Assembly: GCF_026427595.1 (NCBI RefSeq)
Contig: NZ_CP101527.1
Location: forward strand, 1,683,001 to 1,747,000
Reading direction: 5' to 3'
Origin: Alkalimarinus sediminis
GTDB lineage: Bacteria; Pseudomonadota; Gammaproteobacteria; Pseudomonadales; Oleiphilaceae
DNA: 64,000 bases
The position numbers and the translations under genes are program-made. Positions 35,054 through 46,043 of this stretch are shown piece after piece. Numbering within the stretch: the first letter of the stretch is position 1; every line of letters begins with the position of its first letter. The notes under the pieces are model-generated. The model was given only the letters and a program-made list of their open reading frames with translations. It searched no databases and had not been told where the DNA came from.

Positions 35054-35956
35054 TTAAGGGGCGCAGCCATTAATTTTCTCAAACCGCGCAATCAGCTCCC
35101 GGGCGCTAATGACGACAGGCATATCAATCATTTTGCCTTTAAACTCTACCGCGCCACGCCCTTCAGCTAACCCTTTTTCAAAAGCATCAATCAGCCCTCT
35201 GGCATGCTCAATCGCATCAGCGCTTGGCATTAACTCTTCATTCAAGATAGCAGCTTGCTTGGGATGAATACAAAATGCCCCGACAAACCCTAGCTGATTT
35301 GCAAATTGAACAGTTTTTCTGAAGGCCTCTATATCACTATAGTCTGCAATCGAACCCGGAAAACCTAGCGGCGAAATACCCGCTCGCCGACAAGCATAAG
35401 CGATCATCTGGTTGGGCATAAGCAGTGTTTCAGGGATCGAATGCATACCTGCTGACGCAGAAAAATCTTCGGACCCCAACGTAATTGAGATCACTCGAGG
35501 GTTTGCACTGGCAATTTCATCTAACCTAGGAAGCGCCTCTACCGACTCAATCATGGCAATCAAAAGAGTATGGCCGGATTCAATCCCCCGCTCGCGCTCC
35601 AGTTTATCGATCTTAGTCGCGATAGAGATAACTTGTTCAGCGCTTTCAACCTTTGGTATTACGATGGCTGCCACCGATGCATCTATCGAAGCCTGCAAGT
35701 CTAGCATAGCCATTTCTTCATCAAGGTTTATCCTAACTAACGCTGCCGCCCCCTCTACGGAGACTTGCTTAGCTGCATTAACAACCTTTGTTCGTGCAAG
35801 CTCTTTTTCCGCTAAAGGGACGCTATCTTCTAAATCGAGAATATAAGCGTCAGCCCCTCTACTGTGAGCCTTAGCCACAAACTTATCGACATGAACTGGT
35901 ATAAATAATAGCGACCGCCAACCAGGGTAAGCAGCATGATCCGTTTTCGTTTCCAT
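35054..35956 (-). CDS. CitE/HpcH-family CoA-ester lyase, probable (S)-citramalyl-CoA lyase
   Basis: This 300-residue HpcH/HpaI aldolase (CitE-like) opens with RSLLFIPVHVDKFVAKA and carries DAYILDLEDSVP (acidic metal-site region), IPKVESAEQV, IAMIESVEAL and LGSEDFSASAG, the normal order for malyl-, beta-methylmalyl- and citramalyl-CoA lyases. It is the third gene of a minus-strand operon behind the hydratase and the mct-like transferase. There are 4 bases between hydratase stop and lyase ATG, and GGGGTAGG serves as ribosome-binding site. With those partners the best prediction is cleavage of citramalyl-CoA to acetyl-CoA and pyruvate. Cleavage of beta-methylmalyl-CoA to glyoxylate and propionyl-CoA is the alternative. 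Sequence alone does not separate them. The ATG at 35956 is used; a TTG one codon upstream is less likely. Confidence 0.7.
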   Translation of the reverse strand: METKTDHAAYPGWRSLLFIPVHVDKFVAKAHSRGADAYILDLEDSVPLAEKELARTKVVNAAKQVSVEGAAALVRINLDEEMAMLDLQASIDASVAAIVIPKVESAEQVISIATKIDKLERERGIESGHTLLIAMIESVEALPRLDEIASANPRVISITLGSEDFSASAGMHSIPETLLMPNQMIAYACRRAGISPLGFPGSIADYSDIEAFRKTVQFANQLGFVGAFCIHPKQAAILNEELMPSADAIEHARGLIDAFEKGLAEGRGAVEFKGKMIDMPVVISARELIARFEKINGCAP

Positions 35957-35960
35957 CAAC

Positions 35961-36812
35961 CTACCCCTTAATCTTCGCGTCGATTTTCATACACATGGCA
36001 TTATCACTATCTACCGACCATAGTTGCAAAGTCTCACCTTCAGATTTTGCCTCAACCTTAAAGGGAGCGGTATCAAAAGTGGGTCGCACGGCTCTAAACT
36101 TAATATAGGACACCGATTCGTTAGGTAATTCAGATCGAGCCAACTCTAGTAGCAACGTAACTAATAAAGGTCCATGAACAACTAAAGCAGGATATAACTC
36201 CTCTTGTACAGCATAAGTTCTATCGTAATGAATACGGTGACCATTGAACGTGAGTGCAGAGTAACGAAATAATAATACTGGGTCAGGAGTAATGGTTTTA
36301 CTCCAAGTCGCGTCTGCAGGTGGAGCCTTCACAGGCGGTAGCGGTGAGTCTGCTGCAGGCTGCTCTCGGTAAACAATATTCTGTAGCTGGCTTATACATA
36401 AGTTATCAAACTGATAAATCTCATGCTTAACCGTAACAAATATAAGCGTACCAGTACTCCCCTCTTTTAAATCGACGGACTGGATCGTTGATACTCGTTT
36501 AGCAGGGCTACCGATCACAACAGGTTTTATATACTGAGCCTCACCCGCTGCCCACATTCTTCTCGGTAAAGGAACGGGAGGTAAAAACCCCCCTTTACTT
36601 GGGTGTCCATCAACACCAGTCGCTGAGGCTTTTGGTGTCGGCAGAAAATACATCCACTCCCAGAAAGGCGGTAATGGATCGCCTTTTTCTGGCAATAATT
36701 CGTTATCCAATGCTGCAGCAAGTGCCTGAGCTGGAAACAGAGCAATATCATCATTCAGAGTTTCTTGCTTACCAATCCATGTTTGTAAATATGCTATATC
36801 TATTGCTGACAT
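35961..36812 (-). CDS. meh: mesaconyl-C4-CoA / itaconyl-CoA-type hydratase (two-hotdog MaoC family)
   Basis: This is a 283-residue double-hotdog hydratase of the FAS1/HTD2-like branch. It has the N-terminal stretch PFWEWMYFLP and SKGGFLPPVPLPRRMWAAGE (about residues 49-91) and the catalytic-type motif FNGHRIHYDRTYA (about 189-201) in the second hotdog. Relatives include mesaconyl-C4-CoA hydratase of the Chloroflexus bicycle and itaconyl-CoA hydratase of itaconate degraders. Both yield citramalyl-CoA. It is clearly shorter than, and different from, the mesaconyl-C1-CoA hydratase used in the standard ethylmalonyl-CoA pathway. ATG 36812 is preferred to a GTG at 36890 because AAGGG precedes it and the length then fits the family. 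Confidence 0.75.
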   Translation of the reverse strand: MSAIDIAYLQTWIGKQETLNDDIALFPAQALAAALDNELLPEKGDPLPPFWEWMYFLPTPKASATGVDGHPSKGGFLPPVPLPRRMWAAGEAQYIKPVVIGSPAKRVSTIQSVDLKEGSTGTLIFVTVKHEIYQFDNLCISQLQNIVYREQPAADSPLPPVKAPPADATWSKTITPDPVLLFRYSALTFNGHRIHYDRTYAVQEELYPALVVHGPLLVTLLLELARSELPNESVSYIKFRAVRPTFDTAPFKVEAKSEGETLQLWSVDSDNAMCMKIDAKIKG

Positions 36813-36898
36813 ATAATGCCCTTTTAAAATGTCTTTACCAAAAAATAAGATCGTGTGACGTTCTGCTACCGTTAGACAGTAGCTAAACACACTATGGA

Positions 36899-38110
36899 TT
36901 AAGCGCCGGCAATCACACCCTTATCATGCAGCTTACCTATCTGACCTGAGTCTAACCCTAGCACCTCTGACAATACTTCGTCAGTATGCTCTCCTAATTG
37001 CGGAGCAGGTCTTGCTGGCTCTCTCTCGAAAGCAGAAAAACTCCAAGGTGCTCCCGCAGCCAAGTGACTTCCTACACCTGCTTGCTCTATTTCATTGAAC
37101 ATAGGGTTATCTACAGAGCAATCTGGGTTGGTTTCTACCATCTGCTTAACAGTCTGGTAACGACTCCAACAAACCCCATTCGCGTTAAAGACCTTCTCTA
37201 CCTCGGCAAATGAGTGCCGTGCGATCCAAGCACCAATCAACGCTGAAATATGATCTCTCGCTTCAAAACGATTACCTTCTTGAGAGAGATCCAACCCCAG
37301 TTCTTGCCCTAATGCGACCATCGCTTCGGTAGTATCTGTTGCGGCACAGAGAGACTTCCATTGTCGACCTGTTAACCCAATCACCATAACGCGAGCCCCA
37401 TCATTGCATAAAAAGTCTCGCCCAAATGCACCAAACAGGTAATTTCCATATCGAGGCCGCTCTTTACCTAATTGAGCTTCTGCTATAAAACCTAGATGCC
37501 CCATAACCGCCATAGCTGCATCAGCCAATGCCAGCTTGATATGTTGGCCTTCACCGCTTCTATACCGGTGTCTTTCTGCTGCTAACAAACCTAACGCTGC
37601 CATCTGCCCAGTTACCAAATCCCAAGCGGGTAACACATGATTTGAAGGTTCGTTACTCTCGGCACTACCGGTTAAAAATGGCAAGCCAATGGCAGGGTTC
37701 ACGGTGTAGTCAACGGCTGACCCACCATGCCGGTCTCCTTGAATGGTTAACTGTATTAAGTCTGGTCGATGAATAGTTAACTCTTCGAATGAGAGCCAGC
37801 CCTTAGGTGGAAAGTTGGTGAGTAGCATGCCTGCTTCTTTTCCGGGTGCGGTGATGATTTCCCGTGCTAACTCAGAACCTTCAGGGGATCTAAAGTTCAA
37901 TGCAACCGAGCGCTTTGACTTATTTAATCCAGCCCAGAAGAGGCTGACATTGTCATCGGTAACCGGCCAACGACGATAATCAAGGCCACCACCAATAGCA
38001 TCAATACGAATAACATCCGCCCCTAACTGAGCTAACGTCATACCACCTAATGGTGCTGCTACAAAAGCCGACGCCTCAACAACACGCATACCTGAAAGAA
38101 TACCTTTCAT
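36899..38110 (-). CDS. mct: mesaconyl-CoA C1-C4 CoA-transferase (CaiB/BaiF family)
   Basis: This is a 403-residue class III CoA transferase. The N-terminus (GMRVVEASAFVAAPLGGMT, then GADVIR and GGGLDYRRWPV) and the segment VDYTVNPAIGLPF closely resemble, from memory, the Chloroflexus enzyme that moves CoA within mesaconate from the C1 to the C4 carboxyl. The catalytic Asp of the family is D164 in VLPAWDLVTGQM. It is the first gene of the mct-hydratase-lyase operon and is divergent from the oxidoreductase and mcd side of the island. Itaconate CoA-transferase is the nearest alternative. The coupling to mcd, which makes mesaconyl-C1-CoA, favours mct. Confidence 0.8.
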   Translation of the reverse strand: MKGILSGMRVVEASAFVAAPLGGMTLAQLGADVIRIDAIGGGLDYRRWPVTDDNVSLFWAGLNKSKRSVALNFRSPEGSELAREIITAPGKEAGMLLTNFPPKGWLSFEELTIHRPDLIQLTIQGDRHGGSAVDYTVNPAIGLPFLTGSAESNEPSNHVLPAWDLVTGQMAALGLLAAERHRYRSGEGQHIKLALADAAMAVMGHLGFIAEAQLGKERPRYGNYLFGAFGRDFLCNDGARVMVIGLTGRQWKSLCAATDTTEAMVALGQELGLDLSQEGNRFEARDHISALIGAWIARHSFAEVEKVFNANGVCWSRYQTVKQMVETNPDCSVDNPMFNEIEQAGVGSHLAAGAPWSFSAFEREPARPAPQLGEHTDEVLSEVLGLDSGQIGKLHDKGVIAGA

Positions 38111-38225
38111 CCTTCACTCCCTTAAAAATTTTCCAGAATCATAAACCACAGTATGCTATAAATCCATGTTTCAATGGATTAACCAACATTTAAAGAATTA
38201 CTTTTAATTCAAACGGGACCTGCTT

Positions 38226-39251
38226 ATGCGAGCGCTTACTTTTAAGCAACTCGGCCCAATTGAGGCCATAGAACTTAGCCAAATACCGCTCCAAAGACCA
38301 GGCAAAGGCCAGGTTCGTATTAAACTAACCTCAGCGGGTTTAAATCGCGCCGACACACTTTTTCCAGAGGGTCGTTATTTCTTCAAGCCCGCTTTTACTA
38401 GCGCATATTCACAGAATACCACTGCTGAAGCGTTATTTTGTCGATTAGGGTTCGAAGGAGCAGGCATCATCGATGAGGTAGGCGAACAAGTCGACTACCA
38501 AGTTGGAGATCGAGTCGCCATCACCCCTCTTGCACTAGATGTCTGTCAGCAAGGCTGCTTTGCTGAATATGGCATCTACGAAGCGTCTTCATTAATACCG
38601 ACACCCGAAGCACTTTCAGATCAAGAGGCGGCAGCGATTTGGATGCAGTACCTCACAGCATGGGGCGGTTTGGTTTTAGATGGCAATTTACAAGCTGGAC
38701 AATCAGTTGTCATTACTGCAGCGTCTAGCTCTGTCGGCATCGCGGCGATACAAATTGGCAATATGTTAGGTGCAACAACCATTGCAACCACAACTAACGT
38801 AGACAAAGTGCAGCAACTTAAACAGTTAGGCGCTCAATATGTTATTAACATGAAGAGTGATGACTATGTAGAGCAGATTAAAGCTATCACCAATGATAAA
38901 GGAACAGACTTGGTATTTGATGCGGTAGCAGGCCCTGACATCCGCTACTTGGTACAGGGGTCTTCCAGAGGTGGTAAAATTATTATTCAAGGGATGCTTG
39001 ATAGACGCCCAATGGAAATCCACCCTGGTGTGCTAATGAAACGGCTATTAACCATTACTGGGTTTACCTTAGATAAGCTAATAGAGAACAAAGAACAGTT
39101 GCAAAAAGCCATAGATCAGATCACTAATGGCATCAATCAACAACAACTCACACCCGTCATCGCTCAAATGTTTAAACTAGATCAGTTTAATGAAGCGTTT
39201 GCGCTGCTTAAATCAAACAAACATACCGGAAAAATAGTAATAACTCCGTAA
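38226..39251 (+). CDS. zinc-free MDR-family oxidoreductase (quinone oxidoreductase-like)
   Basis: This 341-residue medium-chain reductase lacks the Cys set of zinc alcohol dehydrogenases. Features are SAGLNRADTLFPEGRYF (about residues 37-53), LGFEGAGIIDEVG (substrate-cleft region), WMQYLTAWGGL and the NADPH-binding motif AASSSVGIAAIQIG (about 161-174). It is divergent from mct and lies 200-300 bases before mcd. It is related to, but clearly different from, the PIG3-type gene at 33961. Genes of this type often reduce activated double bonds, so a role in enoyl-CoA or aldehyde side reactions of the pathway is a guess. Its substrate is unknown. Confidence 0.75.
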   Translation: MRALTFKQLGPIEAIELSQIPLQRPGKGQVRIKLTSAGLNRADTLFPEGRYFFKPAFTSAYSQNTTAEALFCRLGFEGAGIIDEVGEQVDYQVGDRVAITPLALDVCQQGCFAEYGIYEASSLIPTPEALSDQEAAAIWMQYLTAWGGLVLDGNLQAGQSVVITAASSSVGIAAIQIGNMLGATTIATTTNVDKVQQLKQLGAQYVINMKSDDYVEQIKAITNDKGTDLVFDAVAGPDIRYLVQGSSRGGKIIIQGMLDRRPMEIHPGVLMKRLLTITGFTLDKLIENKEQLQKAIDQITNGINQQQLTPVIAQMFKLDQFNEAFALLKSNKHTGKIVITP

Positions 39252-39357
39252 CCAGTTAAAAGAATATATTCCTGCAATTACGTTTAAACGAGTAAATATT
39301 TGCACCAAAATGCCTCTAATTTTTGATAAAAATCACATAGATGCTCGTTTTTAGAGC

Positions 39358-39376
39358 AAGAAATCTAGATTTTCTT
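39358..39376. promoter_or_regulatory. palindrome upstream of mcd, possible operator
   Basis: The 12-base perfect palindrome AAATCTAGATTT (39361-39372) is extended to near-symmetry by flanking AAG and TCTT. It sits within the roughly 300-base gap before mcd, which otherwise shows AT-rich promoter-like sequence. It could bind a dimeric regulator of the island. No regulator gene is adjacent. Confidence 0.35.
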
Positions 39377-39544
39377 TAGTTATATTCGTAATTCATATAG
39401 GATAGTTTGATCAATTTACTAATACTTTAGGCTAATACCGCTACGACAAATAGTATGTTTATTGAGCGCTATTTTTTATCAAATAGCGCTCAATATGTTA
39501 GCCCATTTAAAAATACTCTAGTTACTCCCTACTTAAACTACTTA

Positions 39545-39556
39545 GGAGGCCTCTTG
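39545..39556 (+). promoter_or_regulatory. strong ribosome-binding site that decides the mcd start (TTG)
   Basis: GGAGG at 39545-39549 is followed after four bases by an in-frame TTG at 39554. The first in-frame ATG, at 39455, has no such sequence. Starting at the TTG gives 562 residues, nearer the usual length of the family (about 550). Confidence 0.6.
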
Positions 39557-41242
39557 TCTCAGCATCCATCACAACTAATTGACCAAGCGCTGGCGGCAGT
39601 CGATTCGGGCCAGCAGCTTTTGAATCAATCATTGAGTTTTGTTAAGCGCAACTGCTTGAACGAAGCGGGACGAATATCAGCATCCAAGCTAGACAGTTAT
39701 CAGTTGGTCTCTTATGACTTAGCATTTTCTGCCGCAGAACTCACCGGTGCAAAGGTCATGATAGATTATGCTCGCAAGATCAGAGCAACTAGGGGTGACG
39801 AGTCAGATCTGCAAATAGAAGAGCGCATCACACTGCAATTCTGTGCAGAAGTACTGCAGAACATTCGTGGACGCCTAGCACCAAGAAAGGCCGAGTTTGG
39901 TCTCTCAAGAGAAGACTTTAACGGGTCACTAGATTCAGAAACAGTACAACAGTTTTGTGACCAACACTTGTCGACCGAAAAGTTAGTAGAACTAGGTCAA
40001 TTAGCACTTCGTGAAGATGGTCGCACAGGCGACTACGTGCTAGAAGAAGACAAAGAAATCATGCGTGAAACTTTCAGAAACTTTGCGACAGACGTTGTTA
40101 TGCCTCTCGCAGAAGAGATTCACCGCCACGACCTTATCGTACCTGATGAAATACTAAACACCCTAATCGAAATGGGCTGTTTTGGTCTATCTATTCCTGA
40201 AAAGTATGATGGCCTTCAGCCAGATGACCAAGAAGACAATATGGGAATGATCGTGGTGACAGAAGAGCTCTCCAGAGGCTCTCTAGCTGCAGCAGGCAGT
40301 TTAATCACGCGACCAGAAATTCTTTCCAGAGCTCTGTTAGCGGGCGGTACAGAAGAACAAAAGCAGTACTGGTTACCAAAACTCGCTGCCGCAGACCCTT
40401 TCTGTGCAGTTGCCATCACTGAGCCAGATTATGGCTCAGATGTAGCGGGTATGAAACTGAAAGCCGAACGCGTAGAGGGTGGTTGGTTGCTTAATGGCGC
40501 CAAAACCTGGTGTACCTTTGGAGGAAAAGCAGGTGTCCTACTTACTCTAGCCAGAACAGATCCCGACCCAAGCTTAGGCCATAAGGGGCTAAGTATGTTT
40601 TTAGTCGAAAAGCCCTCTTTTGATGGCCATGACTTCGAGTATCAACAAGAAGGTGGCGGTAAACTGACCGGCAAAGCGATACCCACTATCGGCTACCGTG
40701 GAATGCACTCATTTGATGTATTTTATGATGACGTATTTGTCCCGGATTCTAACCTACTAGGTGGTGAAGCGGGTTTAGGTAAAGGCTTCTATTACACCAT
40801 GGCGGGTTTTTCAGGGGGACGCATCCAAACCGCAGCGCGTGCTAACGGGTTAATGCAAGCAGCGTTTGAAGCCGGCATCAATTACGCTAAAGAACGTAAA
40901 GTATTTGGTGCTCCTATCGGTGACTACCAATTAACACTGGTTAAGTTAGCAAAAATGGCGACACTGTTAACTGCTTCAAGACAATTTACCTACTCTGTTG
41001 GTCGTCTAATGGATGAAGGTAAGGGGCAGATGGAAGCGAGCCTCGTCAAGTTATTTGCTTGTAAGAGTTCAGAGTGGCTAAGCAGAGAAGCAATGCAGAT
41101 TCATGGCGGAATGGGCTACGCTGAGGAGTCATCAGTGAGTCGTTACTGGATCGATGCCCGAGTACTATCAATCTTTGAGGGTGCAGAAGAGACGTTAGCC
41201 CTAAAAGTTATCGCCCGATCACTGATTGAGAATGCAGCTTAA
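39554..41242 (+). CDS. mcd: (2S)-methylsuccinyl-CoA dehydrogenase
   Basis: Mcd is an FAD acyl-CoA dehydrogenase specific for methylsuccinyl-CoA, giving mesaconyl-C1-CoA and passing electrons to ETF. It has the long N-terminal helical extension that marks this subfamily (about residues 1-165, including RKIRATRGDESDLQIEER), then the normal dehydrogenase domains. Typical segments are AVAITEPDYGSDVAGMK (flavin region), GAKTWCTFGGKAG, IGYRGMHSFDVFYDDVFVP, and GRIQTAARANGLMQ. The catalytic Glu is in SIFEGAEETLALK. The next gene, ecm, follows after 15 bases. An in-frame ATG at 39455 would add 33 residues without clear family resemblance. Confidence 0.88.
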   Translation: MSQHPSQLIDQALAAVDSGQQLLNQSLSFVKRNCLNEAGRISASKLDSYQLVSYDLAFSAAELTGAKVMIDYARKIRATRGDESDLQIEERITLQFCAEVLQNIRGRLAPRKAEFGLSREDFNGSLDSETVQQFCDQHLSTEKLVELGQLALREDGRTGDYVLEEDKEIMRETFRNFATDVVMPLAEEIHRHDLIVPDEILNTLIEMGCFGLSIPEKYDGLQPDDQEDNMGMIVVTEELSRGSLAAAGSLITRPEILSRALLAGGTEEQKQYWLPKLAAADPFCAVAITEPDYGSDVAGMKLKAERVEGGWLLNGAKTWCTFGGKAGVLLTLARTDPDPSLGHKGLSMFLVEKPSFDGHDFEYQQEGGGKLTGKAIPTIGYRGMHSFDVFYDDVFVPDSNLLGGEAGLGKGFYYTMAGFSGGRIQTAARANGLMQAAFEAGINYAKERKVFGAPIGDYQLTLVKLAKMATLLTASRQFTYSVGRLMDEGKGQMEASLVKLFACKSSEWLSREAMQIHGGMGYAEESSVSRYWIDARVLSIFEGAEETLALKVIARSLIENAA

Positions 41243-41257
41243 ATCTAGGAAGGATCT

Positions 41258-43288
41258 ATGACCGAACAAAATAGCCATACTATCTATGACAAAAACGGAA
41301 ACCCGACCATAGATAGACCTTGGATTTTCCGTACTTACGCTGGGCATACTAACGTGTGGGCAACCAACGCACTTTACCGTGAGAACCTCTCAAAGGGACA
41401 AACCGGTCTTAGTATCGCAATGGACTTGGCTACTCAGTGCGGTTATAGCTCCGACCACCCTATTGCTAAACCAGAGATCGGAAAAGTGGGTGTACCTATC
41501 AACTCACTAGATGATTTCCATATCCTCTTCGACAATATCCCACTTGAAGAGATGAACACCTCAATGACCATAAACGGCACTGCCATGTGGTTGCTTTCGC
41601 TCTATGTGGCCCTAGCCGAAGAGCGTGGCGTTGATATCAGTAAGCTAAAAGGCACTACACAAAACGACCTGATCAAAGAGTACCTTGCACGTGGAACCTA
41701 TATATTTCCACCTGAAGACTCGATGCGATTAATCGTCGACATGTATGAGTTTTGTTTACATAACATTCCTAGTTGGAATGCATCAAATATATGCTCGTAC
41801 CACCTTCAAGAAGCAGGTGCAACGCCAGTTCAAGAACTCGCATTTGCACTTGTTACTTCTATAACTATTCTTGATGCTATCAAAGAGCGTGACTGCTTTA
41901 CTGAGGAAGAGTTCGAGCGATGCGTAGGCCGTATCTCATTTTTTGTTAATGCAGGTATGCGCTTTGTAGAGGAAGTCTCAAAAATGCGCGCATTTTGTGA
42001 AATGTGGGATGAGATCACTCAAGAACGTTACGGTGTTAAAAACGCTAAATACCGCCGTTTTAGATATGGTGTGCAGGTAAACTCGCTGGGGTTAACAGCA
42101 GAGCAACCCGAGAACAATGCATGGCGTATTCTCATTGAGACACTCGGTGTTACCCTGAGCCGAAAGGCGCGATGTCGAGCACTTCAGCTGCCTGCTTGGA
42201 ATGAGGCGCTATCGCTACCTCGTCCTTGGGATCAACAGTGGTCATTAAGAATTCAACAAATCCTGGCTTACGAAACGGACTTACTCGAATACCCTGACCT
42301 TCTTGAAGGCTCAGTCGTGATTGAGTCCAAAGTAAAACAACTTAAAGAAGAAGCCTACGCCGAAATAAATCGGGTATTAGACCTGGGTGGCGGAGTAGAA
42401 GCCGTAAAAAGCGGTTATATGAAGTCGGCACTAGTCTCCTCTCAAAGTCAACGCATGGGTAAACTAGCCAACGGCGAGCAGATAGTTGTTGGTAAAAATA
42501 AGTGGATTGAAGGTTTGGATTCACCGCTTGTAAGTGACAGCGACGGCGGTATATTCATGGTCGATGCAAAAGCGGCTCAAAAGACATTAGACGCCCTGGC
42601 TGAAACAAAGCGGACGCGAGATGACGCCAGAGTAAAAGCTGCATTAGCACGCTTAGCAGAAGACGCCAAAACTAATCAAAACCTCATGGAAGCCTCTATT
42701 GAGTGTGCAAAAGCACGAGTCACAACCGGTGAATGGTCTGAAACGCTGCGCAATGTCTTTGGCGAGTACCGACCGCCTACAGGTGTAGATGGCCAATCCA
42801 TGTCTATTAACGAAGATAGCGAAAGCCTAGCCTCTGTTCGTAAAAAAATAGCGGACTTTATCGAGACTTACGGCTACCGCCCTCGCATAGTAGTTGGCAA
42901 GCCAGGTCTTGATGGCCACTCAAATGGCGCTGAAATGATCGCAGTAGCAGCTAAACACGCAGGTTTTGACGTCGTTTATTTTGGTATTAGATTAAGTGCC
43001 TCAGACATCGTTCAGTCAGCGTTAGAAGAGAACGTAGATCTAATCGGCATATCTCTACTTTCAGGCTCGCACAACGAAATCATCACTCAGTTGTTTGATG
43101 AGCTTGAAAAGAATGGCGCTAAAGAAGCAATGCCCGTAATACTCGGCGGCATAATTCCAGAGCCTGATTATGACGGTCTGCTAGCTCAAGGCATTAAACG
43201 CATTTTTACACCCAAGGACTTTGACCCAATGGTAGTAATGGGCGAGATCATGGATGTGATCAATGAGCAAAAATCAAAACAGCATTGA
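41258..43288 (+). CDS. ecm: ethylmalonyl-CoA mutase (coenzyme B12)
   Basis: Ecm converts (2R)-ethylmalonyl-CoA to (2S)-methylsuccinyl-CoA with adenosylcobalamin. It is 676 residues in one chain: a TIM-barrel substrate domain and a C-terminal B12-binding domain. The Ecm-specific substrate segment NASNICSYHLQEAGATPVQEL (about residues 174-194) differs from the NT-x-SISGYH form of methylmalonyl-CoA mutase. The cobalamin motif is D552-G-H554-S-N-G557 in GLDGHSNGAE, followed by SLLSGSH and ILGGIIPEPD. A good ribosome-binding site (AGGAAGGA) is present. It overlaps meaB by 26 bases. Confidence 0.93.
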   Translation: MTEQNSHTIYDKNGNPTIDRPWIFRTYAGHTNVWATNALYRENLSKGQTGLSIAMDLATQCGYSSDHPIAKPEIGKVGVPINSLDDFHILFDNIPLEEMNTSMTINGTAMWLLSLYVALAEERGVDISKLKGTTQNDLIKEYLARGTYIFPPEDSMRLIVDMYEFCLHNIPSWNASNICSYHLQEAGATPVQELAFALVTSITILDAIKERDCFTEEEFERCVGRISFFVNAGMRFVEEVSKMRAFCEMWDEITQERYGVKNAKYRRFRYGVQVNSLGLTAEQPENNAWRILIETLGVTLSRKARCRALQLPAWNEALSLPRPWDQQWSLRIQQILAYETDLLEYPDLLEGSVVIESKVKQLKEEAYAEINRVLDLGGGVEAVKSGYMKSALVSSQSQRMGKLANGEQIVVGKNKWIEGLDSPLVSDSDGGIFMVDAKAAQKTLDALAETKRTRDDARVKAALARLAEDAKTNQNLMEASIECAKARVTTGEWSETLRNVFGEYRPPTGVDGQSMSINEDSESLASVRKKIADFIETYGYRPRIVVGKPGLDGHSNGAEMIAVAAKHAGFDVVYFGIRLSASDIVQSALEENVDLIGISLLSGSHNEIITQLFDELEKNGAKEAMPVILGGIIPEPDYDGLLAQGIKRIFTPKDFDPMVVMGEIMDVINEQKSKQH

Positions 43289-44312
43289 TTCCATGATGAT
43301 GACTGAACTTAACGATATGATTGAACGAGCGACGAGGTTGGAAAAGTGGCCTCTAGCTCGGCTAATTTCGCTATTCGAAACCAGTACCCCGAAAGCGAAA
43401 CAAGAACGTCATAACGTAATCGACTTGCTCAATAAGCGCCCGGATCAGCTTAAGAAAAGTGGTTTGGTATTGGGCATTACCGGCACGCCTGGTGCCGGTA
43501 AATCAAGCCTTATTGGTGAAGTATGTTTAAATATGCTGCAACAAAACCCGCAGCTTTCTATCGCCGTTTTAGCAGTAGACCCTTCTAGTCAGCGTTCAGG
43601 AGGCTCTCTATTAGGCGATCGAACACGCACCAACTTCCCGGTTAACGATAAGCGCTTGTTTTTCCGCTCTCAGGCATCAGACCTCGATTTAGGTGGAGTA
43701 GGCAAGAAAACCTATCAGGTAACCCGTCTATTAAGACACCTATTCGACATAATTATTATAGAAACCGTTGGCATCGGCCAAAGTGAGATTGAAGTAGAAC
43801 AATTGAGCGATCACACCTGTCTGATACTTCAACCCTTTGCGGGTGACCAGGTTCAGTTTATGAAAGCCGGTATCATGGAGGTGCCAGATACCTTTGTGGT
43901 CAACAAGTGCGATGAAGACAGTCTAGCCAAAAAAAGTTACCACCTTCTAAAATCAAGCTTAAAACTGGTAAACATCTCACTAGACCAAAGTGACGCCCCT
44001 GCGAAAGAGATATTTCTTACTAGCGCTCTCAAGCAAAAAGGCATAGATGAATTGGCTCGATTTCTACTAACGCTTCATTCTGACCTCTCGACAAGAAAAA
44101 ACAAAGACGAGCAGGAAATGTATTACCTAAGGAAGTGGGTTCAACAAGAATTCGGCCGGTTTGGCACAACAAAGTTTGACCAATTACTTCATGACACACT
44201 CTGGAATGAGAGAAGTTATGAAGAGAAGGAACGCATTATAATTGATGACATGCAAACCTTTATTCCTTCACTTGCGGCATCAAATGACTCAAATTTTAAA
44301 TGTTTAACTTAA
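43263..44312 (+). CDS. meaB: MeaB/ArgK-type G-protein chaperone of the B12 mutase
   Basis: MeaB-family GTPases load and protect the cobalamin of acyl-CoA mutases. It is 349 residues with Walker A GTPGAGKS at 74-81, the family segment [21 protein letters not shown] (about 102-122), [13 protein letters not shown] (about 165-177) and the base-recognition motif NKCD. The gene begins inside the last codons of ecm (26-base overlap), so the mutase and its chaperone should be made together. It therefore most probably serves Ecm. The C-terminal dimerisation arm is present. Confidence 0.92.
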
Positions 44313-44331
44313 TAATAATAGGGAAAGTGTG

Positions 44332-45582
44332 ATGACAGAAATCAAAAACCTCTACGAAATTGGCGAAACTCCACCACTAGGAGTCGTGCCAGAAAAAATG
44401 CATGCATGGCTTATTAGACCTGAGCGTTTCGGTGAGCCAATGCAAGCCTTTCAGAAAGAAGTCATTGACGTTCCAGCCATCAAAGACGATGAAGTGCTAG
44501 TGTATGTAATGGCTGCAGGCGTAAACTACAATAACGTATGGGCAGGCCTAGGCGTGCCTATAAACGTTATCGCTGCACGAAACAAAGCAGGTGAGACAGA
44601 AGAGTTTCACATCGGTGGCTCAGATGCTTCGGGAATCGTCTACGCTGTTGGTAAAGACGTTACCAATGTAAAAGTAGGTGACGAAGTAGTTGCTCATTGC
44701 GGAAGCTGGAAGAAAAACTGCCCTATGGAGCAGGCTGGCAAAGACCCAATGTACGATGATAGCTTCCGCATTTGGGGCTATGAAACTAACTATGGTAGCT
44801 TTGCACAGTTCACCAAGGTGCAAGACCACCAGTTGCTACCCAAGCCTAAACACTTGAACTGGGAAGCCGCTGCTACCTACATGCTAGTAGGCGCTACGTC
44901 CTATCGTATGCTAATGGGTTGGCAGCCCAACACCGTTAAGAAAGATGACGTTGTATTGGTCTGGGGTGGTTCTGGCGGTATCGGATCGATGGCCATTCAA
45001 ATTGCAAAAGCACAAGGTGCCAAGCCTATTGCTGTTATATCTGATGACAGCAAGATCGACTTCTGTATGAAACTAGGAGCAATTGGTTGCATCAACCGTA
45101 ACGACTTTGATCATTGGGGCATGATGCCGCACTGGAAGGATCAAGAGGGTTATGGTCAATGGGTTAAAGGTGCCCGTAAATTTGGTAAAGCGATTTGGGA
45201 TATTCTAGGTGAGAAACGCGGTGTAGATATCGTGTTTGAACACCCAGGTGAAACCACGCTACCCACATCGGTATTTGTATGTGAGACCGGTGGCATGGTA
45301 GTAATATGTGCAGGTACTACAGGCTTTAATGCAACTCTCGACTTGCGCTACCACTGGATGCGCCAGAAACGCTTGCAGGGTTCTCACTTTGCAAATGATG
45401 ATCAAGCAAAAGGTATAAACGATCTTGTAGCAGCCGGAAAGGTTGACCCATGCCTGGGCAATACTTATACCTACGATCAACTACCAGACGCACACCAGTT
45501 GATGTATGAAAATAAACACCCTGCAGGGAATATGTCTGTTCTAGTTGGTGCACAAGACACCAACATGGGCATTAGTGAATAA
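44332..45582 (+). CDS. ccr: crotonyl-CoA carboxylase/reductase
   Basis: Ccr is the key enzyme of the ethylmalonyl-CoA pathway: it reduces crotonyl-CoA with NADPH and adds CO2, giving (2S)-ethylmalonyl-CoA. It is 416 residues. The NADPH motif is [12 protein letters not shown] (about 212-223). The residues known to hold CO2 in this family are recognisable: Asn in GVNYNNVW (65-68), the aromatic-Glu pair Y150-E151 in WGYETNYG, and H352 in GSHFAND. These and the long N-terminal part separate it from plain enoyl reductases. The ATG at 44332, behind GGGAAAG, is used; a GTG one codon earlier is less likely. Confidence 0.95.
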
Positions 45583-45589
45583 TCCCCTT

Positions 45590-45615
45590 CCCCCTCTTCT
45601 ATGCGGATGAGGGGG
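45590..45615 (+). other. intercistronic hairpin between ccr and epi
   Basis: CCCCCTC (45590-45596) pairs with GAGGGGG (45609-45615) around a 12-base loop. No U-run follows, and epi starts 23 bases later, so this is more likely an mRNA processing or stabilising element within the operon than a terminator. Confidence 0.5.
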
Positions 45616-45638
45616 ACCTTCACTTAGAGCTTTAAATC

Positions 45639-46043
45639 ATGATTAAGAAAATTGACCATCTAGGTATAGCCGTTACCGACCTAAACGAAGCTATTGAGAT
45701 TTATAAAAACATTGGCCTTGAATTTGTCGGCACTGAAGTTGTTGATGAGCAAAAAGTAGAAACTGCATTCTTTAAGGTAGGCGAGTCTTATTTTGAGCTT
45801 TTGGCAGCAACTGACCCCGCTAGCCCTATCGCAAAATTTATCGATAAAAACGGAGGCCGCATGCACCACATTGCGCTTGCCGTTGACGATATTGAAGCAG
45901 AGATAGAGCGCTTGTTAGGGCTAGACTTCGAAATGATTGATACGGTTCCAAGAAAGGGGGCCCACGGCAATCTAATCGCCTTTATGCACCCGAGATCAAC
46001 AAAAGGGACATTGTTAGAAATATGTTCTAAAGCAAACTCTTAA
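45639..46043 (+). CDS. epi: methylmalonyl/ethylmalonyl-CoA epimerase
   Basis: This is a 134-residue vicinal-oxygen-chelate (glyoxalase-fold) protein. Metal ligands expected for the family are visible: H7 (IDHLGIAV), a Glu around E53 (YFELL), His in GGRMHHIAL (H76/H77) and E127 (GTLLEIC). It inverts the acidic C2 centre of (2S)-ethylmalonyl-CoA to the 2R form needed by Ecm, and also accepts methylmalonyl-CoA. Its position directly after ccr supports the ethylmalonyl role. It is the last gene of the plus-strand set. Confidence 0.92.
   Translation: MIKKIDHLGIAVTDLNEAIEIYKNIGLEFVGTEVVDEQKVETAFFKVGESYFELLAATDPASPIAKFIDKNGGRMHHIALAVDDIEAEIERLLGLDFEMIDTVPRKGAHGNLIAFMHPRSTKGTLLEICSKANS

What the first reader, a model, noticed from the sequence alone, without database searches (positions are those of the whole stretch)
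35054..46043. Hybrid acetyl-CoA assimilation route: ethylmalonyl-CoA upper half joined to a citramalyl-CoA lower half
Seen: mcd-ecm-meaB-ccr-epi on one strand and mct, a mesaconyl-C4-CoA/itaconyl-CoA-type hydratase and a CitE-like lyase on the other. Known: in the standard ethylmalonyl-CoA pathway, mesaconyl-C1-CoA is hydrated to beta-methylmalyl-CoA and split to glyoxylate and propionyl-CoA. In the Chloroflexus bicycle, Mct and Meh take mesaconyl-C1-CoA via mesaconyl-C4-CoA to citramalyl-CoA, which is split to acetyl-CoA and pyruvate. Inference: this organism fuses the two, so that acetyl-CoA + CO2 gives pyruvate in one linear carboxylating route, without propionyl-CoA carboxylase or malate synthase. 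I do not know of a described pathway with this layout in a gammaproteobacterium.
Basis: partly seen in the sequence, partly recalled or inferred. Interest (0 to 1): 0.92.

Follow-up and report, generated by a model that had tools for sequence, protein, structure and literature searches.

The report
Hybrid pathway turning acetyl-CoA into pyruvate
A bacterial gene cluster joins the first half of one known acetate-assimilation pathway to the last steps of another, apparently giving an air-tolerant way to turn acetyl-CoA plus carbon dioxide into pyruvate, a route that had been proposed on paper as an artificial design.

Summary
At 35054-46043, mct-meh-ccl (minus strand) face an MDR gene and mcd-ecm-meaB-ccr-epi (plus strand), and homology supports each name.

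The hybrid reading gains genome support. This closed 4.23-Mb genome has no mesaconyl-C1-CoA hydratase (PF19315), and its only PF03328 lyase is the cluster's own. The layout recurs in two more genomes, one of another family, and its lower half in a third; all four lack PF19315. Trees point to a module swap: Mcd groups with Ccr-linked EMC clusters, Mct, Meh and Ccl with a methylsuccinyl-CoA catabolic module.

It is cyclic in acetyl-CoA, not linear. The lyase is CitE-like, not Chloroflexus Mcl. Accumulibacter carries a similar enzyme set beside a canonical-type EMC.

The reactions match the "reductive citramalyl/ethylmalonyl-CoA pathway" designed on paper in 2021 (PMC10521678). Ten searches of an open-access library showed me no natural case. 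There are no enzyme or flux data, and a DUF6986-type lyase was not searched for in this genome.

The parts
35054..35959 (-). ccl: CitE-like C-C lyase, proposed (S)-citramalyl-CoA lyase
   Evidence: PF03328 138 bits; Arg76, Glu138, Asp165, Asp279 align with Arg76, Glu141, Asp168, Asp299 of R. sphaeroides Mcl at a constant numbering offset of 21; groups with lyases of mcd-mct-meh-ccl modules; the only PF03328 protein found in the genome. Likely ATG start at 35956.
35961..36812 (-). meh: proposed mesaconyl-C4-CoA hydratase (MaoC-like, itaconyl-CoA-hydratase-like)
   Evidence: 217 bits to PDB 8huc and 214 to 8khg, the latter deposited as itaconyl-CoA hydratase; hybrid Meh form one clade 100/100 on the module side. 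No NCBIfam hit. That this enzyme type hydrates mesaconyl-C4-CoA: passages of PMC12290011.
36899..38110 (-). [quoted passage not shown]
   Evidence: 554 bits to PDB 8apq (deposited as 2-methylfumaryl-CoA isomerase) and 563 to 7xkg (deposited as acyl-CoA transferase); next PDB hit 102 bits. Best NCBIfam TIGR04253 563 bits, below its 725-bit cut-off; next family 113.
38111..38225 (.). 115-bp divergent intergenic region between the two operons
   Evidence: ORF coordinates
38226..39251 (+). MDR/PIG3-type oxidoreductase, role unknown
   Evidence: TIGR02824 214 bits, below cut-off 297; relatives at the same place in L061 (58%) and L062 (45%), none over threshold in L053.
39455..41242 (+). mcd: (2S)-methylsuccinyl-CoA dehydrogenase
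   Evidence: 648 bits to PDB 8ciw, 293 to 6es9; Arg286, Arg415, Arg462 and Glu575 align with the three substrate arginines and catalytic Glu535 of the P. denitrificans enzyme; Ala285, Phe287, Tyr243, Lys379 and Glu380 are not kept.
41258..43288 (+). ecm: ethylmalonyl-CoA mutase (MeaA type)
   Evidence: In the 15 listed of 424 plasmid records: 71% to two Leptospira, 54-56% to Ruegeria (annotated meaA, ccrA nearby), Paracoccus, Methylobacterium and others, then 38.7%.
43263..44312 (+). meaB: mutase-associated GTPase
   Evidence: PF03308 198 bits; overlaps ecm by 26 bp.
44329..45582 (+). ccr: crotonyl-CoA carboxylase/reductase
   Evidence: TIGR01751 560 bits, over cut-off 379; 538 bits to PDB 9kva.
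45639..46043 (+). epi: ethylmalonyl/methylmalonyl-CoA epimerase
   Evidence: TIGR03081 142 bits, over cut-off 115.

Best explanation
The cluster encodes a natural oxygen-tolerant bypass of pyruvate synthase. Two acetyl-CoA give crotonyl-CoA (genes elsewhere, not searched). Ccr reductively carboxylates it to ethylmalonyl-CoA; Epi and Ecm (with MeaB) turn that into (2S)-methylsuccinyl-CoA; Mcd oxidises it to mesaconyl-C1-CoA. Mct then moves CoA to C4, Meh hydrates mesaconyl-C4-CoA to citramalyl-CoA, and Ccl splits this into pyruvate and acetyl-CoA, which re-enters. Net: acetyl-CoA + HCO3- + 2 NADPH + quinone gives pyruvate + CoA + 2 NADP+ + quinol. It works beside the glyoxylate cycle, probably as a carbon-saving route on fatty-acid- or acetate-type substrates. 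Shown here: gene identities by homology, conserved linkage, no Mch and no second PF03328 lyase found in this genome, mixed ancestry of the parts. Inferred: substrate specificities, direction, flux, physiological role.
For: Identities. Catalytic residues kept in Mcd and Ccl. Canonical lower half not found: PF19315 none in the own genome and 0 of 4 in the genomes with the hybrid cluster or its lower half (G000, G127, G390, G391). One over-cut-off PF03328 protein each in G000, G390 and G391, the cluster's own. Conserved layout: L053, L062 whole, L061 lower half. Contrast: the Ccr operon of G011 (L055) holds Mch plus a DUF6986 CitE-like protein and no mct in the 12.5 kb held, i.e. just the two lower-half genes that the hybrid operon lacks. 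Mixed ancestry: Mcd groups with Accumulibacter and G011 EMC clusters (97/95; grouping with the full catabolic module rejected, AU p 2e-5), Meh with catabolic modules (grouping with Chloroflexi and Accumulibacter rejected, AU p 3e-63). Feasibility: delta-rG'0 -39 +/- 9 kJ/mol published for the identical net reaction (PMC10521678).
Against: No biochemistry, expression or labelling. Isocitrate lyase and malate synthase make the route dispensable for acetate growth. A DUF6986 lyase elsewhere in this genome was not searched for; the PF03328 search did not report the DUF6986 protein of Accumulibacter G392, so its absence here is not shown. Lack of PF19315 is not special to hybrids: 11 of 30 genomes had no match, seven of them without a hybrid cluster. 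Mct, Meh and Ccl could also serve imported C5 acids. G127 has three further PF03328 proteins. Some active-site residues of P. denitrificans Mcd are not kept. The crotonyl-CoA-forming genes were not located.
Confidence: 0.8

Rival explanations
1. Two unrelated neighbours: mct-meh-ccl (with mcd) degrades imported or catabolic C5 acids such as methylsuccinate or mesaconate, while ccr-ecm makes ethylmalonyl-CoA or methylsuccinyl-CoA for something else.
For: mcd-mct-(meh-ccl) modules without ccr/ecm in the flank held occur in many of the fetched beta- and gammaproteobacterial loci; in L047 they lie with beta-oxidation-type genes. Hybrid Mct, Meh and Ccl come from that lineage.
Against: No CoA ligase or other C5-acid transferase among the genes at 35054-46043. 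The Mcd here belongs to the Ccr-linked lineage, not to the full-module one. ecm is adjacent and co-oriented, and the two operons stay together in L053 and L062.
Confidence: 0.1
2. Canonical EMC after all: a missing mesaconyl-C1-CoA hydratase of another family plus the cluster's CitE-like lyase (or an unseen DUF6986 lyase) makes glyoxylate and propionyl-CoA, the latter used by the methylcitrate cycle.
For: R. sphaeroides Mcl also forms citramalyl-CoA (PMC3832036), so CitE-like lyases can be promiscuous. A prp-like cluster is present. DUF6986 was not searched for here.
Against: PF19315 absent in 4 of 4 genomes. Mct and Meh would have no role. The EMC operons with a canonical-type lower half that I saw carry Mch in the operon (L055, L187, L189).
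Confidence: 0.06
3. Reverse use: pyruvate and acetyl-CoA condensed to citramalyl-CoA and run towards methylsuccinyl-CoA or ethylmalonyl-CoA as biosynthetic units.
For: Several of the steps are reversible in principle; Mcl-type lyases can form citramalyl-CoA.
Against: Citramalyl-CoA formation was reported only with a large pyruvate excess. Ccr supplies ethylmalonyl-CoA more directly and Mcd feeds the respiratory chain (established knowledge). The net forward reaction is exergonic.
Confidence: 0.04

Closest known systems
Reductive citramalyl/ethylmalonyl-CoA pathway, designed on paper (Lowe and Kremling 2021, PMC10521678; section 15 and passages read)
   Same: Same reactions and net stoichiometry; each designed step after crotonyl-CoA has a candidate gene in the window.
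   Different: Presented as a design; the lower half there is taken from the 3-hydroxypropionate bicycle, here it is related to a methylsuccinyl-CoA catabolic module with a CitE-like lyase.
Ethylmalonyl-CoA pathway (Rhodobacter, Methylobacterium, Paracoccus)
   Same: Ccr, Epi, Ecm, MeaB, Mcd up to mesaconyl-C1-CoA.
   Different: No Mch found; no second PF03328 lyase in this genome; predicted products pyruvate and acetyl-CoA instead of glyoxylate and propionyl-CoA.
3-Hydroxypropionate bicycle, second cycle (Chloroflexus) and its partial forms in Kentron, Thiosymbion, Competibacter, Accumulibacter (PMC6593406, passages read)
   Different: There mesaconyl-C1-CoA comes from glyoxylate and propionyl-CoA and the lyase is trifunctional Mcl; Meh and Mct lie in other clades.
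Accumulibacter EMC + bicycle supercluster (L108, L115, L129, L187-L189)
   Same: ccr, ecm, mcd linked to mct and meh, so the same hybrid flux is possible on paper.
   Different: Also carries a canonical-type lower half (Mch and DUF6986 in the EMC operon) plus an Mcl-like gene and a second Mch beside mct; the hybrid route would be optional there.
Itaconate/methylsuccinate degradation cluster (PMC12290011, passages read)
   Same: Related hydratase; same products acetyl-CoA and pyruvate.
   Different: Its methylsuccinyl-CoA dehydrogenase and hydratase work on C4-CoA esters, so no Mct is needed; RipC-type lyase (NF038242), for which the window's lyase scores 147 against a cut-off of 375.
Lcm module (PMC11599936; outline, abstract and passages read)
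   Same: Engineered, oxygen-tolerant, CO2-fixing acetyl-CoA to pyruvate.
   Different: Synthetic, via 3-hydroxypropionyl-CoA and lactyl-CoA; its authors write that the reductive oxygen-tolerant routes they know (3HP bicycle, EMC) still yield a C4 compound first, to which this cluster would be a natural exception.

Membership tests
Ethylmalonyl-CoA pathway (canonical) | Ccr, Ecm, Mcd present and linked | tested here: met
   by homology:
Ethylmalonyl-CoA pathway (canonical) | mesaconyl-C1-CoA hydratase (Mch, PF19315) | tested here: not met
   0 matches in the closed own genome and in G127, G390, G391; 3 of 14 controls ring
Ethylmalonyl-CoA pathway (canonical) | Mcl1-type (PF03328) malyl-CoA/beta-methylmalyl-CoA lyase apart from the cluster's CitE-like lyase | tested here: not met
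   only one PF03328 protein in the genome
Ethylmalonyl-CoA pathway (canonical) | DUF6986-type lyase, the apparent substitute in G011 and Accumulibacter | not tested
3-hydroxypropionate bicycle, second cycle | Mct | tested here: met
   by homology:
3-hydroxypropionate bicycle, second cycle | Meh of the Chloroflexus clade | tested here: not met
   AU p 3e-63 against grouping with Chloroflexi and Accumulibacter
3-hydroxypropionate bicycle, second cycle | trifunctional Mcl | tested here: not met
   only a CitE-like lyase in the genome; it groups away from the Accumulibacter Mcl-like rows
[quoted passage not shown]
Itaconate degradation (Ict-Ich-RipC) | RipC-type lyase | tested here: not met
   NF038242 147 < 375 bits
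Reductive citramalyl/ethylmalonyl-CoA pathway (paper design) | one gene for every step from crotonyl-CoA to pyruvate + acetyl-CoA | tested here: met
   by homology only
Reductive citramalyl/ethylmalonyl-CoA pathway (paper design) | measured net acetyl-CoA + CO2 to pyruvate | not testable with these tools
   needs enzymes or labelling

The most novel reading that the evidence does not exclude
A complete natural acetyl-CoA + CO2 to pyruvate route that tolerates oxygen and needs neither pyruvate synthase nor a C4-acid intermediate. It arose in gammaproteobacteria when the hydratase/lyase half of the ethylmalonyl-CoA pathway was replaced by the end-module of methylsuccinyl-CoA catabolism. Nature thus already runs a pathway that was proposed as artificial.
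Probability: 0.72. Interest if true: 0.9.

Novelty: new variant of a known kind. Interest (0 to 1): 0.82.

Why it matters
Aerobic microbes living on acetyl-CoA (fatty acids, alkanes, acetate, stored polyester) are usually described as reaching pyruvate through C4 acids, losing CO2 on the way. A natural route that carboxylates acetyl-CoA to pyruvate would be a further acetyl-CoA assimilation pathway, would validate a design made in silico, and would hand synthetic biology a naturally matched enzyme set. It makes a sharp labelling test possible. By the reaction chemistry (my derivation), [1-13C]acetate should give pyruvate labelled at both C1 and C2, and 13CO2 should enter acetyl-CoA C1 first; the glyoxylate cycle, canonical EMC and pyruvate synthase predict other patterns. 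Every step is tractable with purified enzymes.

Tried and rejected
Canonical lower half hidden elsewhere: searched with PF19315 and PF03328, not found. That the route is the only acetate-assimilation path: rejected, isocitrate lyase and malate synthase G present. Chloroflexus-type ancestry of Meh: rejected. The three MaoC proteins elsewhere (L002-L004) as Mch: PF19315 does not match the genome, and NCBIfam at E 1e-20 gives no Mch name. Foreign base composition: cluster GC 0.45-0.46 against 0.425 for the rest of the window; uninformative.

Led nowhere: Zarzycki 2009 and 2011 papers not held, so what they say on Accumulibacter could not be checked; the main text of PMC9889269 does not mention the mesaconyl or citramalyl steps; [quoted passage not shown] My first ORF caller missed genes in GC-rich loci, so gene content was recounted by tblastn. 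In the lyase tree two comparison rows (L151, L152) have branches of 7 to 10 changes per column and are probably wrong ORF picks; hybrid support there is only 94/92. In one search, 14 of 15 P. denitrificans Mcd residues carried the letter that the paper gives; position 279 did not. Structure prediction was not used: solved relatives were close enough.


Full report
WHAT IS THERE. The window is bases 1683001-1747000 of a single-contig genome of 4,226,946 bases, 99.91% complete. Two operons face away from each other across 115 bp. Minus strand: mct, meh, ccl (38110 down to 35054). Plus strand: an MDR oxidoreductase (38226-39251), mcd, ecm, meaB, ccr, epi (to 46043). ecm and meaB overlap by 26 bp; mcd-ecm and meaB-ccr are 15-16 bp apart.

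IDENTITY OF THE PARTS. Mct: 554 bits to 8apq (deposited as 2-methylfumaryl-CoA isomerase) and 563 to 7xkg (deposited as an acyl-CoA transferase), next PDB hit 102 bits; NCBIfam TIGR04253 563 bits, under its strict cut-off of 725. Meh: 217 bits to 8huc and 214 to 8khg, the latter deposited as itaconyl-CoA hydratase, an enzyme type described as also hydrating mesaconyl-C4-CoA (PMC12290011, passages). Ccl: PF03328; the Arg, Glu, Asp and lid-Asp residues of malyl-CoA lyase are at Arg76, Glu138, Asp165, Asp279 (Glu141 and Asp168 as metal ligands of Mcl are recalled numbers); it scores far under the RipC cut-off (147 of 375). Mcd: 648 bits to a solved (2S)-methylsuccinyl-CoA dehydrogenase (8ciw), 293 to the P. 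denitrificans one (6es9). The three substrate arginines and catalytic glutamate are kept, but Ala285 and Phe287 of the methyl pocket are Val and Ile here (8ciw has Ile and Ile, by eye), and Tyr243, Lys379 and Glu380 are Ser, His and Ser, so the pocket is not identical. Ecm: in the 15 listed of 424 plasmid records, 71% to two Leptospira records, 54-56% to alphaproteobacterial and one Streptomyces relative (two annotated MeaA, one with ccrA nearby), then a drop to 38.7%. Ccr: TIGR01751 560 bits, over cut-off.

GENOME TEST. Mch (PF19315): none in this genome; three of 14 control genomes ring. PF03328: one protein, the cluster's lyase. MaoC PF01575: three proteins outside the cluster. Two large carboxyltransferases (PF01039) have neighbours that look by eye like branched-chain catabolism (neighbours not scanned), and ORFs of the sizes of prpF, acnD, prpC, prpB surround the PrpB-like hit (names by size, order and recall apart from the PF00463 hit). 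A limit: the CitE-like DUF6986 family (PF22484) was not searched in this genome, and the PF03328 search did not report the DUF6986 protein of Accumulibacter G392.

DISTRIBUTION. Within the order, Mct (E <= 1e-80) occurs in 21 of 390 sampled genomes and Ccr (E <= 1e-110) in 4 of 390; both in 2, this one and G127 of another family. Within the class sample Ccr occurs in 4 of 369, this genome included. In these searches at most four candidates per genome were scored. Of the 20 other Mct genomes I fetched 18 neighbourhoods (G137 and G113 left out), plus one Ccr neighbourhood each of G011 and G119; a further short G011 contig and those of G438, G468 and G598 came. Of the seven Ccr genomes, two are hybrids (G000, G127). 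G011 has Mch and DUF6986 in the Ccr operon. G468 and G598 show ecm-meaB-ccr without mct, but their contigs end just upstream of ecm. G438 is a 5.5-kb contig. G119 (74% complete) has a distant Ccr (44%) and long PF19315 matches. Among the 80, six have ccr or ecm within the flank held: L062 (uncultured Oleiphilus MAG) and five Accumulibacter loci. L061 (a MAG named DOLZORAL124_50_18) has mdr, mct, meh, ccl and then the contig ends. Identities of L062 to the window: mct 78, meh 67, ccl 70, mcd 76, ecm 81, meaB 52, ccr 81%; of L053: 71, 57, 58, 71, 76, 44, 78%. Five genes flanking the cluster in the window (acnB, CBS protein, thioesterase, PIG3, HtpX) were not found beside it in L053, L061 or L062 at the thresholds used, so the cluster seems to sit in different surroundings.

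THE SAME GENOME TEST IN THE OTHERS. PF19315: 0 in G000, G127, G390, G391; of the 30 genomes given, 19 had some match, many of them short single-domain proteins, and 11 had none, seven of which have no hybrid cluster, so absence alone is not special. Long matches include G011, the three Accumulibacter genomes, G119 and two Chloroploca genomes. PF03328 over cut-off: one each in G000, G390, G391, four in G127, of 17 genomes given. ICL family: 10 of 10 genomes given, with long ORFs of 531-569 aa in the four hybrids. Whether G390 holds the upper half on another contig was not tested.

ANCESTRY. Meh tree (36 rows): four hybrids 100/100; hybrids and catabolic modules on one side, Chloroflexi, Accumulibacter and four others on the other, 99/99; forcing hybrids with Chloroflexi and Accumulibacter costs 146 log units, AU p 3e-63. 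Mcd tree (63 rows quick, 28 careful): hybrids 99/98, joined to Accumulibacter and G011 EMC rows 97/95; forcing hybrids with seven full-module rows costs 262 log units, AU p 2e-5. Mct tree (54 of 99 rows, quick): hybrids 99, with modules 99, apart from Accumulibacter and Chloroflexi. Lyase tree (31 rows): hybrids 94/92 next to module lyases; two bad rows. Groups were named by gene context, but the AU groupings were chosen after the Meh and first Mcd trees were seen. The reading: an EMC operon like that of G011, in which Mch and the DUF6986 protein were replaced by Mct-Meh-Ccl from a methylsuccinyl-CoA catabolic module.

MECHANISM. Steps as in Best explanation. Carbon bookkeeping from the known reactions: pyruvate C1, C2 and C3 come from crotonyl-CoA C1, C3 and C4; the fixed CO2 becomes C1 of the released acetyl-CoA. 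Hence [1-13C]acetate should give C1+C2-labelled pyruvate. This is my derivation, not a tool result. The published estimate for the identical net reaction is -39 +/- 9 kJ/mol, without ATP.

WHY KEEP BOTH ROUTES. P. denitrificans has the EMC pathway and the glyoxylate cycle; the first gives yield, the second speed (PMC6747724, passages). The same division of labour is the simplest reading here; inference.

KNOWN OR NEW. Lowe and Kremling (PMC10521678) designed this pathway as a module assembled from reactions found in nature. PMC11599936 (2024) states that the listed acetyl-CoA assimilation pathways end in C4 compounds and that the long oxygen-tolerant ones still pass through C4. Kentron was reported to have a partial bicycle but no EMC. 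Contendobacter (Gammaproteobacteria by recall) was reported to use EMC for propionyl-CoA. I found no report of a natural EMC-citramalyl hybrid in the ten searches (listings seen; passages of twelve papers read, two of them also in outline or section). The library is open-licence PMC only, and the two Zarzycki papers most likely to discuss Accumulibacter were not held.

Noticed in passing
L055:4369-5811 (G011); L108:6735-8174; L115:6685-8124; L189:3208-4647: A 480-aa DUF6986 (PF22484) CitE-like protein sits next to mcd, in operons that also hold Mch, in G011 and Accumulibacter (64-65% identical): a candidate beta-methylmalyl-CoA lyase.
   Followed up: partly
L047, L052, L056, L072 (Pseudomonas migulae), L085 (Spongiibacter), L096, L134 and others: mcd-mct-meh-ccl modules without ccr/ecm in the flank held; in L047 next to ligase, thiolase, enoyl-CoA hydratase and 3-hydroxyacyl-CoA dehydrogenase genes. 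Probably the end-module of a degradation pathway that releases methylsuccinyl-CoA; its substrate is unknown to me.
   Followed up: partly
window 38226-39251; L061:834-1862; L062:8778-9770: An MDR/PIG3-type oxidoreductase lies between the two operons in three of the four clusters (45-58% identical); role unknown.
   Followed up: no
L194 (NZ_CP020413.2, Leptospira interrogans): The closest Ecm-type relative in the plasmid collection (71%) is on a Leptospira interrogans replicon; the gene after it is annotated 'protein kinase', in the place where the hybrids have meaB.
   Followed up: no
L188 / L129 (Accumulibacter G394): Two further CoA-transferase genes (25-28% to Mct) lie between mct and meh in this one of the three Accumulibacter genomes compared.
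   Followed up: no
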